From assembly GCA_013335175.1 (NCBI GenBank), contig JAAXWC010000008.1, positions 1 to 63,076 of the forward strand: 63,076 nt of DNA, read 5' to 3'. The notes beneath the pieces are model-generated. The model saw nothing but the letters and a program-made list of their open reading frames with translations. It was not told where the DNA came from and did no database searches. Numbering within the stretch: position 1 is the first letter of the stretch; each line of letters begins with the position of its first letter. The stretch is from Candidatus Roizmanbacteria bacterium. Its GTDB lineage: Bacteria > Patescibacteriota > Microgenomatia > UBA1406 > GWC2-37-13. The translations under genes were made by a program, and so were the position numbers. Shown here piece after piece: positions 10,475-24,976 of this stretch.

Positions 10475-10720
10475 TCAGACAACACTAACGTACTGTTTGC
10501 CTTGTTTCTGGAAGAAATTTACTGTTCCTTCTTTTAAAGCCATAAGAGTGAAATCTTTGCCTTGAAGCACGTTCTCACCAGCCCAGAATTTTGTTCCTTT
10601 TTGACGCACAATAATATTACCTGCTTTAACAGAGCTACCACCGAACACTTTAACACCTAATCGTTTTGAACGTGAATCTCGATTTCCTCGTACTGCGCGC
10701 TGCGCTTTGGTATGTGCCAT
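10475..10720 (-). CDS. rpmA: 50S ribosomal protein L27
   Basis: This 81-residue protein has the full L27 pattern: [49 protein letters not shown], and a [12 protein letters not shown] segment. L27 reaches the peptidyl-transferase centre with its N-terminus. The N-terminal arm is slightly diverged, with [11 protein letters not shown] in place of the usual GGGSTRNGRDS. It lies six bases downstream of rplU, the usual order, and shares its promoter. Confidence 0.96.
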
Positions 10721-10726
10721 AGATTA

Positions 10727-11038
10727 TTATATTGAACTAATCTGTAATTTAGTAAGCTGTTGTCTGAATCCTCGTACCTTTCGATAGCGTACTTTAGACT
10801 TAAATTTTGCAACACGAACTTTGTCTCCTTTTACTTGGTCAAGAACTTTTGCTTTAACGGTTGATTTCAGAACTGGTGTTCCTACTTCAACTTTTTTTCC
10901 TTCTTCATCGAATAAGGCCAGCGTTTCTAAGTCGACCTCGTTTTCTGCTTCTAAAGGAAGTCTATCGACAAAAACGATATCATTTTCTTTGACAATATAT
11001 TGTTTCCCGCCTGATCTAATGACTGCAAATTGAACCAT
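10727..11038 (-). CDS. rplU: 50S ribosomal protein L21
   Basis: This 103-residue protein matches L21 end to end: FAVIRSGGKQYIVKENDIVFVDRL at the N-terminus, GTPVLKSTVKAKVLDQVKGDKVRVAKFKSK in the middle, and the C-terminal YRKVRGFRQQLTKLQI. L21 binds 23S rRNA in the large subunit. The gene heads the rplU-rpmA unit. Its strong promoter is placed so close to the ATG that the mRNA should have almost no leader. Confidence 0.96.
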   Translation of the reverse strand: MVQFAVIRSGGKQYIVKENDIVFVDRLPLEAENEVDLETLALFDEEGKKVEVGTPVLKSTVKAKVLDQVKGDKVRVAKFKSKVRYRKVRGFRQQLTKLQISSI

Positions 11039-11046
11039 ATCTATTG

Positions 11047-11074
11047 ATTATACTAAAAAAAATAATTTGTGCAA
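11047..11074 (-). promoter_or_regulatory. Promoter of rplU-rpmA, leaderless type
   Basis: On the minus strand the -35 is TTGCAC, the spacer 16 bases, and the -10 a perfect TATAAT (11052-11047). Eight bases lie between the -10 and the rplU ATG at 11038. Confidence 0.75.
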
Positions 11075-11080
11075 GACGAA

Positions 11081-12112
11081 TTATAGTACAAATGTGAGAG
11101 CTATCATGATAGTAAGTACCATTGAGCCTCCGTAGGAAATAAATGGAAGAGCAATTCCTGCAATCGGAAGAATCCCCATGTTCATTCCCATATTCACAAA
11201 TGCCTGAATCATAAAAAACGATAATATACCAATAGTAAATAAATAAAGAAAAGTTCCATCAACATCGCTACGCGCTGCATAGACTAAAATCCGCCGTACT
11301 AGCGCGTAAAATAGGAAAGCAAACAAAATAAGTACCCCTACGCCACCGATGAATCCGAACTGTTCAACCAATGAAGAAAAGGCAAAATCAGTATGATTCT
11401 CAGGTAAAAAATATAAGTGAGATTGTGTACCTAACCCCATGCCTCTTCCCATAACATTCCCCGAACCAATGGTAATAATAGCCTGGGTCATATTGTACGC
11501 CGTTGTTCTTGATTCTGTCGCCGGACTGAAAAAACTCGAAATACGATCCTTTTGATACCCATGCATATGACTCCATGCAAAGGGTATTACCAACATCAGG
11601 CAAAAAAGAGACACGAGTATATATTTTTTATGAATCTGAGAAAAAAACACCATCACTACAAAAATGTAACCATATACAAGCGCATTTCCCAAATCCGGTT
11701 GCTTAAAAATAATGCATGTAGGAATAATAAAGTGAAAGAAAGCTAAGAGGTATGTCTTTCTCTGATGAAACTGGTTCCTCGACTTACTCAGTAAATCTGC
11801 CAAGAATAATATGTAAAAGGGTTTAAAAAATTCTGATGCTTGAAAATTGAAAAAATAGAGATCTATCCACCGTTGAGACCCCTTTGCTTCAATCCCAATG
11901 ATATATGTAACAATAAGAAGAAAAACAAACACCCAGTAAAAGAAAACTGCATTCAGCCGAAAAAAATGAATTCCAATCGCACGTATCACAACTGCCAGGC
12001 CTAAGCCAACGGCAACGGCAATAAGCTCAGTTGGGACAAGCGAGGGCTTGATACCAAGTAAATTAAATACTCCAAAGGAAAATAAAAATAAAGATGAAAT
12101 AAGAATAAGCAT
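11081..12112 (-). CDS. rodA: SEDS glycosyltransferase, RodA-like
   Basis: This 343-residue protein has about ten membrane segments of the SEDS family (FtsW/RodA/SpoVE). It shows the conserved KGSQRWIDLYFFNFQASEFFKP block (about residues 77-98), FKQPDLGNALVYG, and the C-terminal GMNMGILPIAGIALPFISYGGS. SEDS proteins polymerise lipid II into glycan strands, paired with a class B PBP. It is called RodA rather than FtsW because a second SEDS gene, inside the dcw operon, is the better FtsW candidate. It lies nine bases after ileS and probably shares its transcript. The elongasome role is inferred; no MreB gene is in the window. Confidence 0.87.
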   Translation of the reverse strand: MLILISSLFLFSFGVFNLLGIKPSLVPTELIAVAVGLGLAVVIRAIGIHFFRLNAVFFYWVFVFLLIVTYIIGIEAKGSQRWIDLYFFNFQASEFFKPFYILFLADLLSKSRNQFHQRKTYLLAFFHFIIPTCIIFKQPDLGNALVYGYIFVVMVFFSQIHKKYILVSLFCLMLVIPFAWSHMHGYQKDRISSFFSPATESRTTAYNMTQAIITIGSGNVMGRGMGLGTQSHLYFLPENHTDFAFSSLVEQFGFIGGVGVLILFAFLFYALVRRILVYAARSDVDGTFLYLFTIGILSFFMIQAFVNMGMNMGILPIAGIALPFISYGGSMVLTIMIALTFVL

Positions 12113-15139: not shown

Positions 15140-18100
15140 TCAAATCATGAAAAGCTTGCCAATATCTTCAAGTTCTTCACTTTTGCTTAATCCTTTTATT
15201 GTCTCTTCATCTGTTTCAACTGAAAATACCCTCAGATTAAATGACTGTTCTTCTATCTTTAGAATCTCTTTTTTGCTCATATCTGACCACAATCTTTTCT
15301 TGTTCTTAAAAGCCTCTTTGAACTCCTCAACGGCTGTTAATGTTAATGTGTTGATCTCTCCATCGCGTCTCTGATACGGCTTTAATATGTCAGCAAATCC
15401 GTTTACCCAATTGAAATTAGCTAAGTAACTATTTTCTATATATTCTTTTCTCTGTTTGAATTTAGTTAACTTCTCCTTTGAAAGGGACAATGAACCATTT
15501 GACCACATATAACATTCAACTAAAGACTTCCAACAACTATATAGCTCTTTCTTGTCCCCTGATACTGTCGAGGGATCGCAAATTTTTTGAAAAACAGCAT
15601 CCATAGACTCAACATAAATAGTAAACCACCTATTATCACCTGATATCTCCCATAGGATTCGAGAAATGGCATCATTACTTTTATTGACAAACTGTGTGTT
15701 AAACCTCACAATACCATTCTGCGATATCTCAGGTTTTATCCTGTTGTATAACTCAGCGATTATGAATGCGGTATTGATTTTCACATTCTCACCATTTAAT
15801 CCTTCTCTTATAATTGTTGAAAGAACTCCTCCTAATTCACTCTCGGAAATGAATGGATTTCTACCCGTAAGATACTTATTCACTACCTCCAAAGACCCAT
15901 TGGTAAATAACTCTTCTCTTGAAAAAATTCCTTTATCTTTCATATTACCAGCAAAAAGTTTCCACATTGTTTTTGTGACTGCCTCATTGGGAGTACTATA
16001 CGTACCAAGCTTGTTCGATTGTGCAAGACTCTCTAACTTATCATAGAGATGCAGGAACCAACTAATGCCTGAAGATTCTCCAGGACTTAATTCAAACGTA
16101 TCAGAGATACTTATTGTCATTTTTCCCGAACTCAGCGTAGGTACTCGGTTCTCTCTCAACGCCCTTGCAAGTCCACTTTTTATAAGATGTAAATTATTTT
16201 GAAAATCCCTTTCTTTACAATTTCTACCTAATACGTCCGTGAAAAAATGCACACGTTGCCTGTTTGGAGGAATAAATGCTCCCCGAAAGAAATCACGAAT
16301 TTCTTCAAAAGACTCCAGTTTATTAAATCGTTCTAGGGTGTAGGCAGGGTCTACATTAACCATTAAATTCGGGTATTCTAATTGATACAGTGCTTGTTCT
16401 ATATCAGCAAAATGCGTTGGTCTGTCGTTTGGATTTATTCGCACCATACTCACTATTAATTCAGCGAGAACACCATTAACTTTGTTTTTAGTTAAGGTTG
16501 CAGTCAAAGCCGCTTCGCGGTTTGGCCCAGACTTCAAAAAAACACTTTCTCCTGTTGCAAGAGTATACAACGTAGCACCCAACCCATGAATATCCATGGT
16601 AGTAGCTAAGGGTGCCTTGCTTTGTTCGGGCGCTGCATAATCTTGAGAACCGAATGCTTCTGTCCCGCTGTGCGCAGTTTTTGCTCCTAAATGATCTAAA
16701 TCTATCGTATCAGTACCAATTTTATTTGCTATGCCAAAATCAGTTAAGTAGGCCGCTGCTACTGAGCCATCAGTGTGAAGTGTCAGCAAAATATTTGCCG
16801 GCTTAACGTCACGATGTACAATTCCATTTTTTTCAATCGCCTTTAAAGCTATAGTCATACATCGAGCAATGGTAAGCAAATCTTTTTCTCCAAACCTGTT
16901 ACCTTGTTTCATGGTATGGGCTAACAGAACACTCGCATCTAAGGCGCCCTGAATGTATTCAGAGACAAGAAGCTTACGATTATAGATCGGGTCGAGGGGC
17001 GAAGTGCTTACATCGGAAGAAAGTTTCATAGCCCGTAATGGCACGATATAGGTGTCGAGACCTAGCCCGAGGGTATTAGAAAACTTAGCAGCATTGAATA
17101 CTTCTCTTTCAAATCGGTCAGCGACACGTTGAACGGCAGGAACGATTTTTTCATTCGTATACTGCTGAACCGTAAATAGGAGAGAACTATAGAGGGTACG
17201 TAGTTTTGTATAACCTTCGATTTTACCTTGAGCAGATAATTTACTCAACACGATTTCTGTAGCTAATTCTTCTTTTATTCTTTTTATCTCCTGTTCCAGT
17301 GTCTTTCCTTGAAAAGGGACGGAAAGATGTTGTTGAAAGTCTTTTTGTATGGCGTCCATCAGTGCTTTTATTTGTGTTTCACGCATTGTTATTAATGTTG
17401 ATTGTGCCACACCATCAAATGTATTGAAAACAGGATCTAAGCCATCAAGCTGTGTGGTTTGCGAAGCTCTATATCCCCTCAGAGCAAGATGAATTAAACG
17501 TTCTCCTCCCGTCGTATCGGTGATGGCTTCTTTCACAAACAATTTGTGAACCTCCGTCGGAATGAGAACTGATATATCACGAGCCACTCCATCTTTATCA
17601 ATAACGTAGGGGGGGAGACGTGGTGGGCATACTATTTTGAACGGCAAGGACAGCCCCTTTCCGTCCAAGACCTGATACACTTTGCTATGAAGAATAGTTG
17701 ACTGAATTTCTTCACAACTGCCGACAAGGTAGGCACCCGACATACCGCCCTGTTGACTCAAAGGGCCAAGTACAATCAGTTCGCTCGCTAACATCGGCAT
17801 CATTATCACCTCACCCGTGCGAAGCGTTCCCTCATCATGAATAAATCGACCCTCTATTTTTGATTCAATCGTTAAAACACCTGTTTTCACCTGTGGAATG
17901 CTTTCCATTAATATTTGTTGTGCCTGATCAAAGGTGGTCACTGCCTGCCACTTGCTCTCATTTGCTGCTCTTTGCGATACATATTTCTCGTATTCATTTT
18001 TCGCATGGTGTGCCAGAAACTCAGCCGGATTAATGGTGTAGGATCGAATTAAAGATGCTACCAAGGCCGGTTCTTTTCCACCATCGATAAGCTGAAGCGC

Positions 18101-19210
18101 TGCTGCCTTTACACCTTTCACTAATGCCATTGCTTCTTCATATCCCTGTCCGAGTTTTTCAGCGAGCTCAGGACTCATTTCTTCTGTCGCAAAGACTAAT
18201 TCTTGAGGAGAGTTCACAATCTGTTCTTGCAAGACGGCCTGCATATGTCGCCTATCCTCAGGTTGGAGGAGTGAAACATCGGCACAAACATGGGCAAGCT
18301 GACTCCGAGCAATAGACCAGGCAACTTGAGAAGGAGTAAGTGTGTTTATTTCTTCGAGTATCACTTTTTTAGATTTGCCATAAACGCGCTCGACAGTTTC
18401 ATCATCAGTCAGCAAAAGTTCTGAGACTTTTTTCGGTGTCAGATTGTGTAAGGGTAGGGAAAAAAAATTTTCCTTTGTCTGTAAAAACTGTTCTGTTTGA
18501 AAATCGGCAAAATGCTGGATCACCTCCTGAACCTCGTGCTGTCTGACCTTGTCGCGATCACCTAACATCACTACTACATCCCCTTGAAACTGTTTTCTGA
18601 ATGCTTCGTTAAAATTATCCCGTTCAATGGTAAACCCAGGGTACTGAAAGAGCTGTCCCTTCATAATTTTCTGGTCAGTGATCTCTGTCCCGTCAGCGTC
18701 ACGAAACGTAACTCCCAAAACATTTTTGTATGCCTCAACACCCGCCTCACTGGTATCAAAACGAATTGCTACTGTTGAACCGGCCCACACTTCAAGGTTA
18801 ACGCCTACGTCGCCCAGTGACTGCCCTTGATTGCGGGGGATAGCATCGATGAGTATTTTTTGAGCGAGCGCTCGTGATGCTTCATCAGATCCTTGGAGTT
18901 TTTTTACTTCTAAACCACCTCTTTCATCAGGCTCTGCCAATGAAATACCATCCTGCTGCTTCATATATGCTTCAACACCTGCTCGTATCTCTTGAAAACG
19001 CGTAACTACTGGTTCAAGCTGGCCTTTCATAGGAAAACGTAAGGTAATCTCAGTTTCCGGATGCGCAGCAAGAGTTTGCGCAATCTTCAAGCTATCTTCG
19101 GAAAAAGCAGTGTACAGTAACGGGGCAACATCCGGATGATCACTGATTCTGTCCCGTACCTTCCCGAGAGAAAATTCGGAAGATTGCTGAAATTCTGTAT
19201 TTAATTCCAT
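15140..19210 (-). CDS. Giant Ser/Thr protein kinase-domain protein
   Basis: This 1356-residue protein starts at the ATG at 19210. The N-terminal ~470 residues are not recognised. A protein kinase domain follows. Its glycine-rich loop is LGPLSQQGGMSGAYLV (about 481-497) and its likely VAIK lysine K560 (LFVKEAI). A hinge-like LLVSEYIQGALD precedes the catalytic loop HRDVKPAN (D801). DFG is at D824 and an APE-like YAAPEQ follows. The spacing between the lysine and the hinge is far longer than usual, so the N-lobe seems to hold an insertion of 100 or more residues. The last ~400 residues are helical and unrecognised. There is no membrane segment, so it is probably cytosolic. It has its own promoter. 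All catalytic residues are present, so it is likely active; its targets are unknown. Confidence 0.82.
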   Translation of the reverse strand: MELNTEFQQSSEFSLGKVRDRISDHPDVAPLLYTAFSEDSLKIAQTLAAHPETEITLRFPMKGQLEPVVTRFQEIRAGVEAYMKQQDGISLAEPDERGGLEVKKLQGSDEASRALAQKILIDAIPRNQGQSLGDVGVNLEVWAGSTVAIRFDTSEAGVEAYKNVLGVTFRDADGTEITDQKIMKGQLFQYPGFTIERDNFNEAFRKQFQGDVVVMLGDRDKVRQHEVQEVIQHFADFQTEQFLQTKENFFSLPLHNLTPKKVSELLLTDDETVERVYGKSKKVILEEINTLTPSQVAWSIARSQLAHVCADVSLLQPEDRRHMQAVLQEQIVNSPQELVFATEEMSPELAEKLGQGYEEAMALVKGVKAAALQLIDGGKEPALVASLIRSYTINPAEFLAHHAKNEYEKYVSQRAANESKWQAVTTFDQAQQILMESIPQVKTGVLTIESKIEGRFIHDEGTLRTGEVIMMPMLASELIVLGPLSQQGGMSGAYLVGSCEEIQSTILHSKVYQVLDGKGLSLPFKIVCPPRLPPYVIDKDGVARDISVLIPTEVHKLFVKEAITDTTGGERLIHLALRGYRASQTTQLDGLDPVFNTFDGVAQSTLITMRETQIKALMDAIQKDFQQHLSVPFQGKTLEQEIKRIKEELATEIVLSKLSAQGKIEGYTKLRTLYSSLLFTVQQYTNEKIVPAVQRVADRFEREVFNAAKFSNTLGLGLDTYIVPLRAMKLSSDVSTSPLDPIYNRKLLVSEYIQGALDASVLLAHTMKQGNRFGEKDLLTIARCMTIALKAIEKNGIVHRDVKPANILLTLHTDGSVAAAYLTDFGIANKIGTDTIDLDHLGAKTAHSGTEAFGSQDYAAPEQSKAPLATTMDIHGLGATLYTLATGESVFLKSGPNREAALTATLTKNKVNGVLAELIVSMVRINPNDRPTHFADIEQALYQLEYPNLMVNVDPAYTLERFNKLESFEEIRDFFRGAFIPPNRQRVHFFTDVLGRNCKERDFQNNLHLIKSGLARALRENRVPTLSSGKMTISISDTFELSPGESSGISWFLHLYDKLESLAQSNKLGTYSTPNEAVTKTMWKLFAGNMKDKGIFSREELFTNGSLEVVNKYLTGRNPFISESELGGVLSTIIREGLNGENVKINTAFIIAELYNRIKPEISQNGIVRFNTQFVNKSNDAISRILWEISGDNRWFTIYVESMDAVFQKICDPSTVSGDKKELYSCWKSLVECYMWSNGSLSLSKEKLTKFKQRKEYIENSYLANFNWVNGFADILKPYQRRDGEINTLTLTAVEEFKEAFKNKKRLWSDMSKKEILKIEEQSFNLRVFSVETDEETIKGLSKSEELEDIGKLFMI

Positions 19211-19217
19211 GGATATA

Positions 19218-19247
19218 ATAATGATGGATAATGACACCGTTTGTCAA
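19218..19247 (-). promoter_or_regulatory. Promoter of the kinase gene, leaderless type
   Basis: The minus-strand -35 is a perfect TTGACA (19247-19242), the spacer 18 bases, and the -10 CATTAT. Seven bases separate it from the ATG at 19210. The -10 is a weak match (4 of 6). Confidence 0.55.
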
Positions 19248-19347: not shown

Positions 19348-22300
19348 TCAATTCTTCACAGATGAAACAAAATTATGTTCAACGGCTAGTTCGAGCATTT
19401 TTCTATATGATGTTTCAGAAAGATATAGAATGTAATTATCTATGAAAACATCTTTATATTTTCTATTTTGCCCAGCATCAAATAACGCATATGCTTCCTT
19501 AAACTGTTCTAATGGGAGAGGTATTCCATTTTTCATTGCAGTATGATAAAAGGTTTGGAATGCTTTTTGCACGTTCCCTCCGTTTGCTAATATCCAGTTT
19601 TCCACTCCGATGCCTCCCAAACTACTATCTTCAATTTTTTTATATGCATTTGCTTTTTTCAAAATTGTTTTTGCGTAGATTATATTAGCCAAAACCTCAA
19701 AATATGACTCCTCTCCTTGATGATCTTTTATCCACTCTAATTTATCGCTGATTGCCATATCACTGCCATATACCTTGAGATCTGATTTTGAGCCAATGCC
19801 AATATCGACATCAATAGACCTTCCATCAATTTGAGCCCCCAAGGCACGTATCTGAACATACGAAGTGTTCGTATACGAATCGAAATTATCTTGAAGAGGA
19901 GCAAGTTCCTGTTCGAGTCGTTTTTTAATATCTCTAGCTTTCTTAATATCTGGAATGGTAAGATTAAAATCAAAATCATTATTTGTGAAAAGCGATGTAT
20001 GTCTTCCGGTAGAACCAATGTCATTCAGTTCTGCTTTCAGTAAATCGAGATCATCTCCTTCACTTAACGGTATGTTAAACTCCGACAGCACTGATGCTAT
20101 CTTTGCACGAATGATACCGGATAATCGGTCGACTTCTGTTATATTTGTTTTCACTGATTCAACAATTTTTTGTATCTCTTGGTAATGAGAGGAATCTTTG
20201 TCCATTTGCTCATACATAAGGGGTGAGCCATCATAGCGTGATACACCGATAAATGCCCTTCGCATTTTTTCGTAATCATCTGGCGAAAAAATTATTTTAC
20301 CCGTGATATCGGTGACTGGAATATAAGCACCGTGACATGCAATACTATAAAAAATGTTATCTAACTGTTTACTATCTGCAATTAATGCAGGCTGAGCTAT
20401 CAGAAAATCTACTTTACTGGTACCAATTCCGGTACGAATGCCCACATGTTGCTCAGATAATCGATTCGTATGAAATACTTCAGGTTTATTTGCTTTTCCA
20501 GGAAAAAATTGTTCATGTTGAAACATACTCCTATCTCTGATTACCAGCATAAGCTGTCCAAACTTATGAGCCTCTGACGATTCAATGATTTGCTGAAACC
20601 TCGGCATCTCCGCGTTTTCAGATACTTCTTCAAAGTCTGTATCAAAAGGTGTTGAGTCAGAAGTTGCGCTCGGACCTAAAAATTCCTTCGATACGGATCC
20701 GTTTTCCCATATTAAGTTAAAATAATTATTATCTATACCCTTTAGTAAAGTTCCTGCCGGAAGACTCATGTACCCTTCATTTTGTTGTATAGCCTGTTGA
20801 AAAAGTTCTGTTCGTCGTTTATGTGCTGTCTCCTTTGTATTCTTCATGACATTTAAGGCCTCGTGTATGGTTAGACAGTTTACTGGCTTTAAAAAGATAT
20901 CGGAAATTTTTGAAAGAATAGTCTCTCCTTTTTCTGCATGTACATCCAAATTCTTTTCAATAGTTTGAATGAGAAGGTCTAGTTCTTCATCATTCATAGA
21001 ATCGTCCCCCTCTGCTTGATAGCTATCATTCTCAGGGAAAACAGATTGACTAAGAAATTGCATTTTTTTGAGAGTTAAATACAATTTTGATTTTTCGGGA
21101 TCGGTAAGTAACGTGTTTTTTCTCTTTTCTATGAGCGGATACGACTCGTTTATGCCGGTGAGATAGTCTACAAGAGAGCGATTTCCAGACTCAAGATGGA
21201 TAGTAAGTAAATCTCTGTAAAATATTCTATAGAGAAGATCATCATTTCCGCTTTCAGCAACCTTGGTAAGAACAGGGCTCAGTTTGTGATTGTTCACGTA
21301 TTTTTTTATAGTATCTGGGGGATAGAGAATTTGAAAAACCTTAAACACCTTACCTATAACAGGAAGGTAATTTTTTACAAAAACTTGTTCTATAGAATTG
21401 TAGTGCTCAAGCGGGTTATCGACACCTGCTATCATTACTATGAGTTGATTGCGTAGTCTTTGAATTTCCTGAGAAGGAGAGTTTTCGATACGCGCCCATA
21501 TCTGTTGAAATACCTCCGGCTGTAGTTGTACATCTGAATGTTGGTGTTTCAACTCATGAAATAAATGATTGATCGTCTGTTTATTATGGAGCAATATGGA
21601 CTGTAATGAATCATTTGAATGCGCAATAACATCCCAATATTGTTTTTCATTGTCAGGCAAAAAGGAAATTAGTTCTGGTGTTATTATCTTTGACAATAGA
21701 AAATCACGTAGTGAATCTGAACAATTTTGCTTCATAAAATACGGGAGAACAGTATCTTTTACCGTACCGTCATGGTTTATATACTTACTATAGAGTTGTT
21801 GTATGGATATGCTTTTTAAGCCATCTACATGCTTCATAGTTATCACTCGTTTTCGAATTATTGGGTTGGAAAAAATTTCCATCTCATCATCAGTTAATGT
21901 ATCAATAGCGTATATTATTTCCGGAGAGTACATAGAACGTAGGTCATCAGTAGAATTTTCTCGATTTTCGCAAACAAGCTTGCTCCACTTCGCAAATCGT
22001 TTGATTGCATTTTGCGCATCATCATTTTGTTGTTTATACCTGTCATCACCATCAGCAATTTCTTTCAAAGTACCTACATTGTTCTTAAAAGCATGTACGA
22101 GCTTACGTAAGTGATGATTAAAAAATTGATTGACAGGAAAATCAGTTCTATCAAAAAGGTTTGTTTGCGAAGTTGAGAGATATGCGGCTTGCGCTATGGC
22201 ATCAAACTCCTCTTGTTGAAGTATATGCAAATGATAGAGATCAACTACAGGTTGCAGCTTTGTCAGCAATTCCTGAGCAACTAAAATTCTATAATTAAAC

Positions 22301-23592
22301 TCACTCATATCATTTATTTGTAAATCAATAGCATGAATAAATGATACCTGCACTTCTTCAGGGAAAATGGAAAGTTTTTCAATCACATTTTTTAAACTTT
22401 TCGCAGAGTTGTAAGGGACATAATCACCTGTTCTTTCAATAAGAGCGTGACCATAAGGGTGTAATCCCAATTCTCCTCGAACGGCATTATTCTCATCTAA
22501 TATACGTTGGATACTACGTGAAGAAGCATGTTCCAATGCATCAAGAATATTTGCACCAAATCGAAAGTCTTCACGAGAAAATTCAGTGCACAGTTGGGCA
22601 AGTACCGTTCGATCCACTTTATTGATGCGTTCATTTGCCATGGCAACTCGTTGTTGTGAGTTATTATCAATTAGTTGCTCTATCACTTGTATTTTATTTT
22701 CATAAAACTGTATATCATCTCCACTCAGTATTTTTGTCACATCTTCCTGAATACCTGTTACCTCTGCGAGTGTTGAAAATCGGTTAAAAACAGCCACTAT
22801 GGCATGTTGTTCTTGATCTGTTTTTGTAAAGAAATCCAATAAATAGGGGAAGTGAATAGTGATATTTTTTATTTCAAGAAATGGTATTTTTTTCAGATTA
22901 TCCAGTGAACGTGTATACTTTTCCTCAGGTATGGCGGCTATCGTACTTAGTTTATGAATATTTTTCAAAGCCTCATCTCTGTTCAAGTCGACAAATTTTT
23001 GATGTATTCCCAGATTGTCCAAGCGTTGGTACAGAGTTAAGGGATCACATTCCTTTTCCAAATCGGCAAGAAATGCTGATTTTTTTGCAAGAAGATCATA
23101 ATTTTTTTTATGAATTATAATTTCTTCATCTTCAGAAGTTATATATTCGTAAAGATCGGGACTTCCATTCTGTTCCATAAATTGCAGGAGTGAGTTTGCC
23201 CTCTGAGTATCTTTCAGACATTTTTTCAACTTACCTATAAGTTTTGCTCTTTGAATAAGTTCTGATACTCGTTCTTTTATTGATCTTTTCTTTTGATATC
23301 TAATCACTGCTTCCCTTCGTTTTTGGGAGTCACTGGCAATTTCATCCCACTTATTTGTCGTGGTTTTATGTTCTCTTTGTAAAAAATCATTTACCTTTTC
23401 CCGTATAGCAATATTATCTTCTGTAAGATCACGTACTTTCTGATCTCTTGGTAACCCAAGAAATACGCGCATTCGATCAATGCGATAATCTGAGGTTTCT
23501 CTATTTAGATAATTATCTTTTCCTAAGTTGCGAGAAAATTGGATATCAGTGCTATCGATGCTTTGTTTTTCGATATTGTATTCTTCTAACAT
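19348..23592 (-). CDS. Giant protein with C-terminal CCA/OAS-type nucleotidyltransferase domain
   Basis: This 1414-residue protein has ~1000 N-terminal residues that are mostly charged and helical, with no recognised domain and no membrane segment. Residues about 1045-1150 form a separate block with HVGIRTGIGTSKVDFLIA and IACHGAYIPVTDITGKIIF, family unknown to me. Residues about 1185-1345 match the minimal nucleotidyltransferase fold: GS at 1193-1194, catalytic-type D1206 and D1208 in NNDFDFNL, and a third carboxylate D1261 or D1263 in SIDVDIG. A helix GGIGVENWILANGGNVQKAF follows, resembling the helix after the catalytic core in archaeal CCA-adding and OAS-like enzymes. The product and substrate are unknown. 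The start at 23592 is uncertain; the next in-frame ATG is at codon 41. It ends 137 bases before the kinase start. Confidence 0.75.
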   Translation of the reverse strand: MLEEYNIEKQSIDSTDIQFSRNLGKDNYLNRETSDYRIDRMRVFLGLPRDQKVRDLTEDNIAIREKVNDFLQREHKTTTNKWDEIASDSQKRREAVIRYQKKRSIKERVSELIQRAKLIGKLKKCLKDTQRANSLLQFMEQNGSPDLYEYITSEDEEIIIHKKNYDLLAKKSAFLADLEKECDPLTLYQRLDNLGIHQKFVDLNRDEALKNIHKLSTIAAIPEEKYTRSLDNLKKIPFLEIKNITIHFPYLLDFFTKTDQEQHAIVAVFNRFSTLAEVTGIQEDVTKILSGDDIQFYENKIQVIEQLIDNNSQQRVAMANERINKVDRTVLAQLCTEFSREDFRFGANILDALEHASSRSIQRILDENNAVRGELGLHPYGHALIERTGDYVPYNSAKSLKNVIEKLSIFPEEVQVSFIHAIDLQINDMSEFNYRILVAQELLTKLQPVVDLYHLHILQQEEFDAIAQAAYLSTSQTNLFDRTDFPVNQFFNHHLRKLVHAFKNNVGTLKEIADGDDRYKQQNDDAQNAIKRFAKWSKLVCENRENSTDDLRSMYSPEIIYAIDTLTDDEMEIFSNPIIRKRVITMKHVDGLKSISIQQLYSKYINHDGTVKDTVLPYFMKQNCSDSLRDFLLSKIITPELISFLPDNEKQYWDVIAHSNDSLQSILLHNKQTINHLFHELKHQHSDVQLQPEVFQQIWARIENSPSQEIQRLRNQLIVMIAGVDNPLEHYNSIEQVFVKNYLPVIGKVFKVFQILYPPDTIKKYVNNHKLSPVLTKVAESGNDDLLYRIFYRDLLTIHLESGNRSLVDYLTGINESYPLIEKRKNTLLTDPEKSKLYLTLKKMQFLSQSVFPENDSYQAEGDDSMNDEELDLLIQTIEKNLDVHAEKGETILSKISDIFLKPVNCLTIHEALNVMKNTKETAHKRRTELFQQAIQQNEGYMSLPAGTLLKGIDNNYFNLIWENGSVSKEFLGPSATSDSTPFDTDFEEVSENAEMPRFQQIIESSEAHKFGQLMLVIRDRSMFQHEQFFPGKANKPEVFHTNRLSEQHVGIRTGIGTSKVDFLIAQPALIADSKQLDNIFYSIACHGAYIPVTDITGKIIFSPDDYEKMRRAFIGVSRYDGSPLMYEQMDKDSSHYQEIQKIVESVKTNITEVDRLSGIIRAKIASVLSEFNIPLSEGDDLDLLKAELNDIGSTGRHTSLFTNNDFDFNLTIPDIKKARDIKKRLEQELAPLQDNFDSYTNTSYVQIRALGAQIDGRSIDVDIGIGSKSDLKVYGSDMAISDKLEWIKDHQGEESYFEVLANIIYAKTILKKANAYKKIEDSSLGGIGVENWILANGGNVQKAFQTFYHTAMKNGIPLPLEQFKEAYALFDAGQNRKYKDVFIDNYILYLSETSYRKMLELAVEHNFVSSVKN

Positions 23593-24043
23593 GTATTGTA
23601 CAAAGTATCTAACATGATTTTCTGTAACACGAATAAATGTATCATAGTACCTTTACCGTTACAACAGTTTATAGCTATTTATTACACAACAATAGAAATG
23701 TCCGCCCTCTTCTAGGGGTAAGTGCGAGATACTAGGAACTATTCATTAGCCTCATTATCATCCGCATGACACATAAAATCAAGTTCACGTCGCAGGAAGA
23801 AAACAGGAGTCAGATTAAGAGGACATGATCTTTCATACATTTCATTACCAGAAAGACCACCAAAAATGAAAACTAATCCAGTCGTTTTGACTACTCACAA
23901 ACTCAACTGGAAACCACCAGCTAATCATCCGTGGCGAAAGTAAACTTAAAAGAACTGGTTTGACATACTTTGATGGGAGGACATTTCTATTGTTGTCTGA
24001 CAACTTATCAAGAGAAAGTTTTGCACTTTATAGTTTCATCCCT
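23593..24043. other. Intergenic stretch between two divergent genes
   Basis: About 450 bases separate the nucleotidyltransferase gene (leftwards) from the HD gene (rightwards), the longest protein-poor stretch of the window. I see no RNA gene or repeat. It holds one possible 25-codon reading frame (23866-23943) and the HD gene promoter at its right end. Confidence 0.4.
23866..23943 (+). CDS. Possible 25-codon peptide ending in HPWRK
   Basis: The frame starts at ATG 23866 and ends at TAA 23943. It encodes MKTNPVVLTTHKL followed by NWKPPANHPWRK. The tail resembles short P-x-x-N-H-P-W-R/K peptides that I associate with small orphan or mobile-element-linked frames, but I cannot name a family. 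The same frame is open about 30 codons further upstream without a usual start codon. It may be a decayed remnant rather than a gene. Confidence 0.2.
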   Translation: MKTNPVVLTTHKLNWKPPANHPWRK

Positions 24044-24049
24044 TACAAT
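24021..24049 (+). promoter_or_regulatory. Promoter of the HD-domain gene
   Basis: The -35 is TTGCAC (24021-24026), the spacer 17 bases, and the -10 TACAAT (24044-24049). The -10 touches the ATG at 24050. If this promoter is used, the start would be the next in-frame ATG at 24065, with a leader of about nine bases. Confidence 0.5.
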
Positions 24050-24976
24050 ATGACACAAAAATATATGAATACAGAAACGGTTTATGGACGATCTGTCTGG
24101 TCATTTATGAGAGAGGTAGGGCGATTACAGTCCAGTTCAGTACAAACTGAAAATCAAGAGCCTTTAAAGCTTCCTCAGGTAGCGGAAGATTTGATTCAAC
24201 GTTATCCAGATGCGCCCAATAAAGTAGAACGATTTTTTAAAGAAAAACCGGATGAATATAACCCATTTCTAGAAATACCAGAAGCACTGCGACCATTATT
24301 TATCGCTTCAATGGAAAACATTCAGCGTTGGGCTGGTCGGGGCATCGAATCGGATCTTGATCATATCCTTGGTATGCTTGGGTTATATCGACAGTTCGTC
24401 GAAAAAGCGCCGGCTGCACTTCAACTTGTTGATGATAAAAAAGTGAGGCAGGAAATTATTTTGCATGATGCCGCGGAAGGAATATCGGGAGATGAAGAAT
24501 TCTCCGGCCCCGCCTATGAGGCCCATCGCGCAAAACGAAAGCGAAGAGAAAAATGGATAACGGATAAGCTTCTTGTCCCTATGCTCCCCCTCCATTTACA
24601 GCAATCAACGCTCCGTCTATACGAAACGTATGAAAATCCGTCGATAGATAATCCCACAGAGATACTTGTGCACTTGTTAGACAAACTTGATGGATTTCAT
24701 ACTCTTGGGACAAAGAGTATTATAAAATTCCCTGAAATATATAGTACTCCACAAGATATGGCTCGATCAATAAAAATACTTCTCGACTGGGTAAATAGAT
24801 ACTTTGAGTGTTTATTAGCTAAGAATGCGCCACATGAAGCTTTTATTGAAGTCAAACAAATTATTGACAATGTGAGCGCCCAGTTCCCCGATGAAGTTAT
24901 AGAAAAAAACGGACTGAATTCACTTATTTCTCTTCCGGAGGAAGGCAGGGACATCGAACTCGGAGTCGTCGTCTAG
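24050..24976 (+). CDS. HD-domain phosphohydrolase (YfbR/HD_3-like)
   Basis: This 308-residue protein (from 24050) has the metal-binding pattern of HD hydrolases related to YfbR 5'-nucleotidases: H105 in SDLDHILGM, H139-D140 in IILHDAAEGISGDEE, and D211 in VHLLDKLDGF. The first ~70 residues are a low-similarity extension. Such proteins dephosphorylate nucleoside monophosphates or cut cyclic or oligonucleotide phosphates; the exact substrate is unknown. The gene faces away from the nucleotidyltransferase gene, with its own promoter. Its last 57 bases overlap ftsZ tail-to-tail. ATG 24065 is an equally plausible start. Confidence 0.75.
   Translation: MTQKYMNTETVYGRSVWSFMREVGRLQSSSVQTENQEPLKLPQVAEDLIQRYPDAPNKVERFFKEKPDEYNPFLEIPEALRPLFIASMENIQRWAGRGIESDLDHILGMLGLYRQFVEKAPAALQLVDDKKVRQEIILHDAAEGISGDEEFSGPAYEAHRAKRKRREKWITDKLLVPMLPLHLQQSTLRLYETYENPSIDNPTEILVHLLDKLDGFHTLGTKSIIKFPEIYSTPQDMARSIKILLDWVNRYFECLLAKNAPHEAFIEVKQIIDNVSAQFPDEVIEKNGLNSLISLPEEGRDIELGVVV

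What the first reader, a model, noticed from the sequence alone, without database searches (positions are those of the whole stretch)
19348..23592. CCA/OAS-like nucleotidyltransferase fused to a 1000-residue unknown region
The C-terminus has GS (1193-1194), D1206/D1208 and D1261 or D1263 with the spacing of archaeal-type CCA-adding and OAS-like enzymes (third carboxylate about 50 residues after the pair), plus the following GGIGVENW helix. A bacterial tRNA CCA enzyme is normally a stand-alone protein of about 400 residues. A fusion of this size suggests a different role, such as nucleotide second-messenger synthesis, RNA tailing, or protein nucleotidylation.
Basis: partly seen in the sequence, partly recalled or inferred. 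Interest (0 to 1): 0.75.

Follow-up and report, generated by a model that had tools for sequence, protein, structure and literature searches.

The report
Nucleotidyltransferase fused to ADP-ribosyltransferase-like domain
A very large protein of a tiny uncultured bacterium ends in an intact nucleotide-adding enzyme domain that, in every relative found, sits directly behind a domain shaped like an ADP-ribose-transferring enzyme; this is an uncatalogued enzyme pair, most likely part of an effector or conflict protein, whose target is unknown.

Summary
The minus-strand ORF at 19348-23592 (1414 aa) ends in a class I nucleotidyltransferase (NTase) domain, residues 1126-1414. G1193, S1194, D1208 and D1263 are invariant in 34 sequences, D1206 in all but one, and GGIGVENW is invariant. 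The third carboxylate is D1263, not D1261. AlphaFold2 gives pLDDT 90.6; Foldseek finds archaeal CCA-adding enzymes, CdnC and Cid1 (E down to 1.3e-5).

The 'unknown 1000 residues' are three parts: about 690 residues unlike any relative, about 180 conserved helical residues, and a 254-residue domain whose predicted fold (pLDDT 89) matches only ADP-ribosyltransferase (ART) superfamily structures among the 50 hits listed (best Tpt1: probability 0.96, but E only 0.03). This ART-like domain directly precedes the NTase in all 33 public relatives found by the NTase motif (Patescibacteria and gut Bacillota). In other genomes it is followed instead by an HD-like or kinase-like tail. No Pfam, NCBIfam, PHROGs or PDB sequence hit covers the window protein.

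It is not the cell's CCA enzyme (the genome has a bacterial one), and no CBASS-type partner gene was seen. Best reading: a cytosolic effector or conflict-type enzyme that nucleotidylates RNA or protein. Substrate and ART activity are untested.

The parts
19348..23592 (-). whole ORF, 1414 aa: lineage-specific N-terminus, conserved helical stretch, ART-like domain, class I NTase
21523..23592 (-). residues 1-690, lineage-specific; only 4.6% Gly+Pro, probably helical; almost no relative aligns here
   Evidence: 0 of 43 relatives at residues 1-561; no transmembrane or signal segment
20980..21522 (-). residues 691-871, conserved helical stretch shared by 11-36 of 43 relatives, rising C-terminally
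20218..20979 (-). residues 872-1125, ART-like domain (MID); ART-like core about residues 944-1116
   Evidence: pLDDT 89.0; all 50 listed PDB fold hits are ART superfamily
20740..20742 (-). K951, always basic (K 32, H 5, R 3 of 40), at the first-strand position of the ART [H/R] motif; with E970, D979, D986 (40/40) and R1053 (37/40)
19351..20217 (-). residues 1126-1414, class I NTase domain (spine helix, palm, helical half)
   Evidence: (pLDDT 90.6)
20011..20016 (-). G1193-S1194, NTase GS motif (invariant)
19969..19977 (-). D1206-F-D1208, first two carboxylates (D1208 invariant; D1206 in all but one row)
19804..19806 (-). D1263, third carboxylate (invariant)
19594..19617 (-). GGIGVENW, residues 1326-1333, invariant start of the helix resembling GFSGYL.ELL of archaeal CCA enzymes (resemblance from memory)

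Best explanation
A leaderless, probably cytosolic multidomain enzyme of the effector or conflict type. The C-terminal class I NTase, with an intact two-metal carboxylate set, transfers nucleoside monophosphate from an NTP to an acceptor; an RNA 3' end is the likeliest acceptor, a protein next. It works with the ART-like domain directly in front of it, which is either a second, diverged NAD/ADP-ribose-type catalytic site or the nucleotide/substrate-binding site that controls the NTase. The long variable helical N-terminus recognises the target or trigger. Shown: both predicted folds, conservation of the NTase catalytic residues, the ART-like domain always in front of the NTase, replacement of the NTase by other tails in related proteins, and patchy distribution. 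Inferred: catalysis, substrate, the ART chemistry, and the conflict role.
For: NTase catalytic residues kept in 34 sequences; fold hits to archaeal CCA, CdnC, Cid1 and GLD-2; profile hits to OAS2 and cGAS (weak) and to CBASS cyclase models in 17 of 34 members. ART-like fold with residues basic/E/D/D kept in 40 of 40 even when the tail is not an NTase. ART-like domain directly before the NTase in 33 of 33 loci found by the NTase motif. The same module ends in an HD-like tail (L008, L058, L059, L060) or HipA-like kinase tail (L061, L062; weak) elsewhere. Two relatives lie in giant proteins with PRTase-CE, methyltransferase or ADPrib_exo_Tox domains. About 2-3% of searched Patescibacteria genomes have it, with variable N-termini, no transmembrane or signal segments and no conserved neighbours in Patescibacteria.
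Against: No experiment. No immunity gene is seen in Patescibacteria (a conserved small downstream ORF exists only in one Clostridia subclade). The gene lies next to ftsZ/ftsA and ileS without clear island composition (GC3 z -1.7). No phage relatives were found. The ART match has E no better than 0.03 in the PDB and is not supported by profile-profile comparison with Tpt1 (no better than the control); the canonical ART glutamate is not conserved.
Confidence: 0.5

Rival explanations
1. RNA end-repair or tailing enzyme for the cell's own RNAs: a Tpt1-like domain cleans an RNA end and the CCA/TUTase-like NTase re-extends it, with an HD tail as a hydrolytic alternative.
For: Nearest folds are Tpt1 for the ART-like domain and CCA-adding enzymes/Cid1 for the NTase, both RNA-end enzymes; obligate pairing.
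Against: Tpt1's RNA lobe and its Arg-His-Arg residues are absent (PMC6333775); no significant profile match to Tpt1; only about 2-3% of genomes carry it; the kinase-like tails do not fit.
Confidence: 0.2
2. Second-messenger synthase of the CD-NTase/OAS kind: the N-terminus senses a trigger and the NTase makes a (cyclic) oligonucleotide.
For: Cross-matches to CBASS cyclase models (17 of 34 members, best 1.6e-6 over all models), SMODS and OAS2/cGAS; CdnC/CdnD among the fold hits.
Against: No recognised CBASS-type protein among the seven window proteins scanned, apart from generic kinase hits; no conserved neighbour in Patescibacteria; always fused to an ART-like domain; fold closest to CCA enzymes.
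Confidence: 0.12
3. Protein-modifying enzyme (AMPylation/UMPylation plus ADP-ribosylation), like the Pol-beta NTases and ARTs of polyvalent proteins or MNT antitoxins.
For: Kinase-like tails replace the NTase in two relatives; ARTs, kinases and NTases are among the protein-modifying domains described for polyvalent proteins (PMC5512222).
Against: The NTase is a full class I domain, not the minimal version described there; no LPD or ArdC-N domain was matched in 27 relatives.
Confidence: 0.15

Closest known systems
Archaeal class I CCA-adding enzyme (PDB 1r89)
   Same: Palm fold, GS + DxD + third Asp, helical half; best Foldseek hit, E 1.3e-5, probability 1.00
   Different: TM-score normalised by the target is only 0.36: no body/tail-like region; fused behind an ART-like domain; the genome already has a bacterial-type CCA enzyme
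CD-NTases (CdnC, CdnD) and OAS/cGAS
   Same: Same class I fold; CdnC E 5e-5; weak profile hits
   Different: CBASS enzymes are stand-alone with an effector gene nearby; here a large fusion without recognised partner genes
Tpt1/KptA RNA 2'-phosphotransferase, NAD lobe
   Same: Best solved-structure fold hit of the ART-like domain (7yw4, probability 0.96, TMt 0.64, E 0.03); [HKR]GT-like first strand followed by an IL..G helix; lacks a conserved fifth-strand Glu
   Different: RNA lobe with Arg-His-Arg missing; invariant E970, D979, D986 instead; no significant profile similarity
DarT and PARP-type ARTs
   Same: ART fold hits
   Different: Catalytic Glu not conserved; the first-strand residue is mostly Lys
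Polyvalent proteins and polymorphic toxins
   Same: Large leaderless proteins mixing ART, NTase, kinase and methyltransferase modules with swapped parts
   Different: No LPD/ArdC-N domains, no phage or conjugative context, no secretion signal or immunity gene seen in Patescibacteria
MenT-type NTase toxins (MenT3, PMC11541572)
   Same: Possible mode of action: extension of tRNA acceptor ends by a toxin NTase (from the abstract)
   Different: MenT is part of a toxin-antitoxin pair; no such pair was identified here and no direct comparison was run

Membership tests
Class I nucleotidyltransferase (Pol-beta superfamily) | GS motif, DxD and third carboxylate on adjacent strands of a palm fold | tested here: met
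   G1193 S1194 D1206 D1208 D1263
Class I nucleotidyltransferase (Pol-beta superfamily) | Nucleotidyl transfer activity | not testable with these tools
   needs an in vitro assay
Archaeal CCA-adding enzyme | Body and tail domains that bind tRNA | tested here: not met
   ORF ends after the palm and helical half; TMt 0.36 to 1r89; only one member gives a weak PF09249 hit, E 0.054
Archaeal CCA-adding enzyme | Sole tRNA CCA enzyme of the cell | tested here: not met
   a bacterial PolyA_pol-type enzyme is at G000:C28 and in 12 of 13 genomes tested
CD-NTase / CBASS | Match to cyclase or SMODS models | tested here: inconclusive
   17 of 34 members hit PDLC00803 (best 1e-5) and 15 hit PDLC00776 (best 1.6e-6), but the window protein itself hits none; SMODS E 0.0031 in the best member
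CD-NTase / CBASS | Adjacent CBASS effector gene | tested here: not met
   none among the seven window proteins scanned; no conserved neighbours
ADP-ribosyltransferase superfamily | ART fold | tested here: met
   all 50 listed PDB fold hits are ART superfamily, though none passes E 0.001; support is structural only
ADP-ribosyltransferase superfamily (canonical H-Y-E or R-S-E) | Catalytic Glu (or Asp) in the fifth strand | tested here: not met
   the STE position is E/K/D/N/S/T and others across members
Tpt1/KptA | RNA lobe with Arg-His-Arg and PF01885-type profile | tested here: not met
   no winged-helix lobe with LRH or RA..GHS motifs; no PF01885 in this genome; hhalign probability 6.5%
Polyvalent proteins | LPD/ArdC-N domains in phage or conjugative context | tested here: not met
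Polymorphic toxins | Shared module with exchanged C-terminal catalytic domains | tested here: met
   ART-like domain followed by NTase, HD-like or kinase-like tail
Polymorphic toxins | Secretion signal and adjacent immunity gene | tested here: not met
   no signal/transmembrane segment; no conserved neighbour in Patescibacteria; a small conserved downstream ORF only in one Clostridia subclade

The most novel reading that the evidence does not exclude
The ART-like and NTase sites act in sequence on one substrate. For example, the ART-like site places ADP-ribose (or exposes an RNA end) and the NTase extends that group with nucleotides, which would be a two-step nucleic-acid or ADP-ribose tailing reaction not previously described.
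Probability: 0.1. Interest if true: 0.9.

Novelty: new variant of a known kind. Interest (0 to 1): 0.6.

Why it matters
Two enzyme folds that act on nucleotides and NAD are coupled in one polypeptide across Patescibacteria and gut Bacillota, with the ART-like module also serving other tails. The family is absent from the curated libraries searched, so these giant proteins are currently left as 'hypothetical'. If it is an effector, it gives a concrete, testable enzyme for interactions of host-dependent ultrasmall bacteria with their hosts or rivals.

Tried and rejected
Whole-protein Pfam, NCBIfam and PDB sequence searches gave no trustworthy hit for the window protein. Viral contigs: no relatives with three queries; PHROGs: nothing trustworthy. 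Membership in Tpt1 was tested by profile-profile comparison and not supported (control 77), so the ART assignment rests on fold and motif position only. Operon with the neighbouring giant Ser/Thr kinase (15140-19237): no relative of that kinase in 15 other genomes with the ART-like module; treated as a neighbour, not a part. CBASS context: no partner gene seen. T4SS delivery: the T4SS ATPase is in 9 of 9 genomes, so it does not discriminate.

Full report
Observation. The ORF at window 19348-23592 is on the minus strand, 1414 aa, uninterrupted. The genome (G000, 1.45 Mb) is in the class that holds a genome (G184) whose contig length coincides with that of a record titled Candidatus Daviesbacteria, so it is very probably a Patescibacterium. 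Alignment of the last 289 residues with 33 relatives shows G1193, S1194, R1197, D1208, D1263 and GGIGVENW invariant, and D1206 changed in one row only. D1261 varies, so the third carboxylate is D1263.

NTase fold. AlphaFold2 with this alignment gives mean pLDDT 90.6, pTM 0.90: a long spine helix, the GS turn, strand 81-88 with the DxD, strand 133-143 with the third Asp, and a helical half. Foldseek against the PDB returns archaeal CCA-adding enzymes first (1r89, E 1.3e-5, probability 1.00), then CdnC (5e-5), Cid1 and GLD-2. Sequence profiles agree more weakly: OAS2 E 0.007 and cGAS about 0.1; CBASS cyclase models hit 17 of 34 members, best 1.6e-6, but not the window protein itself; NTP_transf_2 hits 9 members. 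The NTase core is well supported.

The rest of the protein. BLAST of the window protein against 43 relatives gives no coverage at residues 1-561, 1 relative at 601, 11 at 681, and 31-43 from 721 to 1361. So about 690 residues are specific to this lineage, about 180 are a conserved helical stretch, and 872-1125 is a second conserved domain (MID). No relative has a transmembrane or signal segment by hydropathy.

MID is ART-like. AlphaFold2 gives pLDDT 89.0, pTM 0.85. All 50 listed PDB hits are ART-superfamily proteins: Tpt1 (7yw4, probability 0.96, TMt 0.64), tankyrases, DarT, PARPs and toxin catalytic domains. No E-value is below 0.03, however. Viral hits include ADP-ribosyltransferase-annotated proteins at low significance. 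Profile-profile comparison with eight Tpt1 sequences aligned the LYHGT strand and following helix in the expected register but with probability 6.5%, no better than the NTase control. In 40 MID sequences, residue 951 in the first strand is always basic (K 32, H 5, R 3); E970, D979 and D986 are 40/40 and R1053 37/40. The fifth-strand Glu of canonical ARTs is not conserved, and Tpt1's RNA lobe with its Arg-His-Arg residues (PMC6333775) is absent. MID is therefore an ART-like domain of unproven activity, not a Tpt1.

Pairing and swapping. The genome-contig scan, which used NTase-motif patterns, returned 33 loci from Patescibacteria and Bacillota. All 33 have MID directly in front of the NTase in the same frame; it is partial in L039, cut by the contig end in L034, and the L036 frame starts inside MID, the upstream half being a separate ORF. 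MID without NTase occurs in L058, L059, L060 and L008, with an HD-like tail (Pfam HD E 7.7e-4 in L008 only, below its curated cut-off; the others by shared sequence), in L061 and L062 with a HipA-like tail (weak, E 0.008 in L061), and in L009 with none. Two relatives lie in giant proteins with PRTase-CE and methyltransferase (L057) or ADPrib_exo_Tox (L031) domains. A tree of MID+NTase separates ten Bacillota from the rest with full support, while the Patescibacteria are mostly unresolved. The module is patchy: 13 of 373 genomes in the class (partial and weak matches included) and 7 of 380 across the phylum sample.

Context. The neighbours are a giant Ser/Thr kinase protein (15140-19237), an HD protein on the other strand (23960-24976), ileS, ftsZ and ftsA. 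The kinase has a paralogue in the same genome (53%) but no relative in 15 other genomes with the module, and no neighbour is conserved in Patescibacteria. In one Clostridia subclade a small ORF follows the gene in six loci. The genome has a normal bacterial CCA enzyme.

Interpretation. The protein has the parts of an effector or conflict enzyme: a variable N-terminus, a shared ART-like module, exchangeable catalytic tails, patchy occurrence and no metabolic neighbours. The NTase is most like RNA-end enzymes and CD-NTases, so RNA is the likeliest acceptor; MenT toxins (PMC11541572) are a functional model for NTase-based growth inhibition, known here from the abstract only. Second-messenger synthesis is less likely because no partner gene is seen. 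RNA repair is possible but does not explain the kinase-like tails or the patchiness. All catalytic statements are inference.

Noticed in passing
window 15140-19237 (-): Giant 1365-aa Ser/Thr protein kinase (Pkinase at residues 756-946, E 1.5e-21) between the NTase gene and ileS; a full-length paralogue (53%) lies at G000:C40:27803-31957.
   Followed up: partly
L057:1260-13535 (+): 4092-aa Patescibacteria protein combining PRTase-CE, two ART-looking stretches, an HD-like module, a methyltransferase and the ART-like+NTase pair; the sequence holds a few N's.
   Followed up: partly
L031:2-9064 (+): 3021-aa protein of a gut Bacilli MAG with the ART-like+NTase pair, an ADPrib_exo_Tox domain (E 1.2e-14) and an HD-looking C-terminus.
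   Followed up: no
L030:3525-3947, L032:9566-9958, L033:9712-10068, L035:9769-10143 and 10712-11179, L036:9668-10126, L038:9642-10136: Small conserved ORF of 118-164 aa directly downstream of the gene in a Clostridia subclade, two copies in L035; no trustworthy Pfam match in the three scanned; possible partner or immunity gene.
   Followed up: partly
L019:1-5277: A second NTase copy at residues 6-272, ahead of the MID-NTase pair in the same open frame, at the contig edge.
   Followed up: no
L061:2038-2754, L062:8426-9166: C-terminal tails behind the ART-like domain that look like HipA-type kinases (weak PF20613 match in L061 only).
   Followed up: partly
window 23960-24976 (+): HD-domain protein (HD_3, E 2.2e-6) transcribed divergently from the NTase gene.
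   Followed up: no
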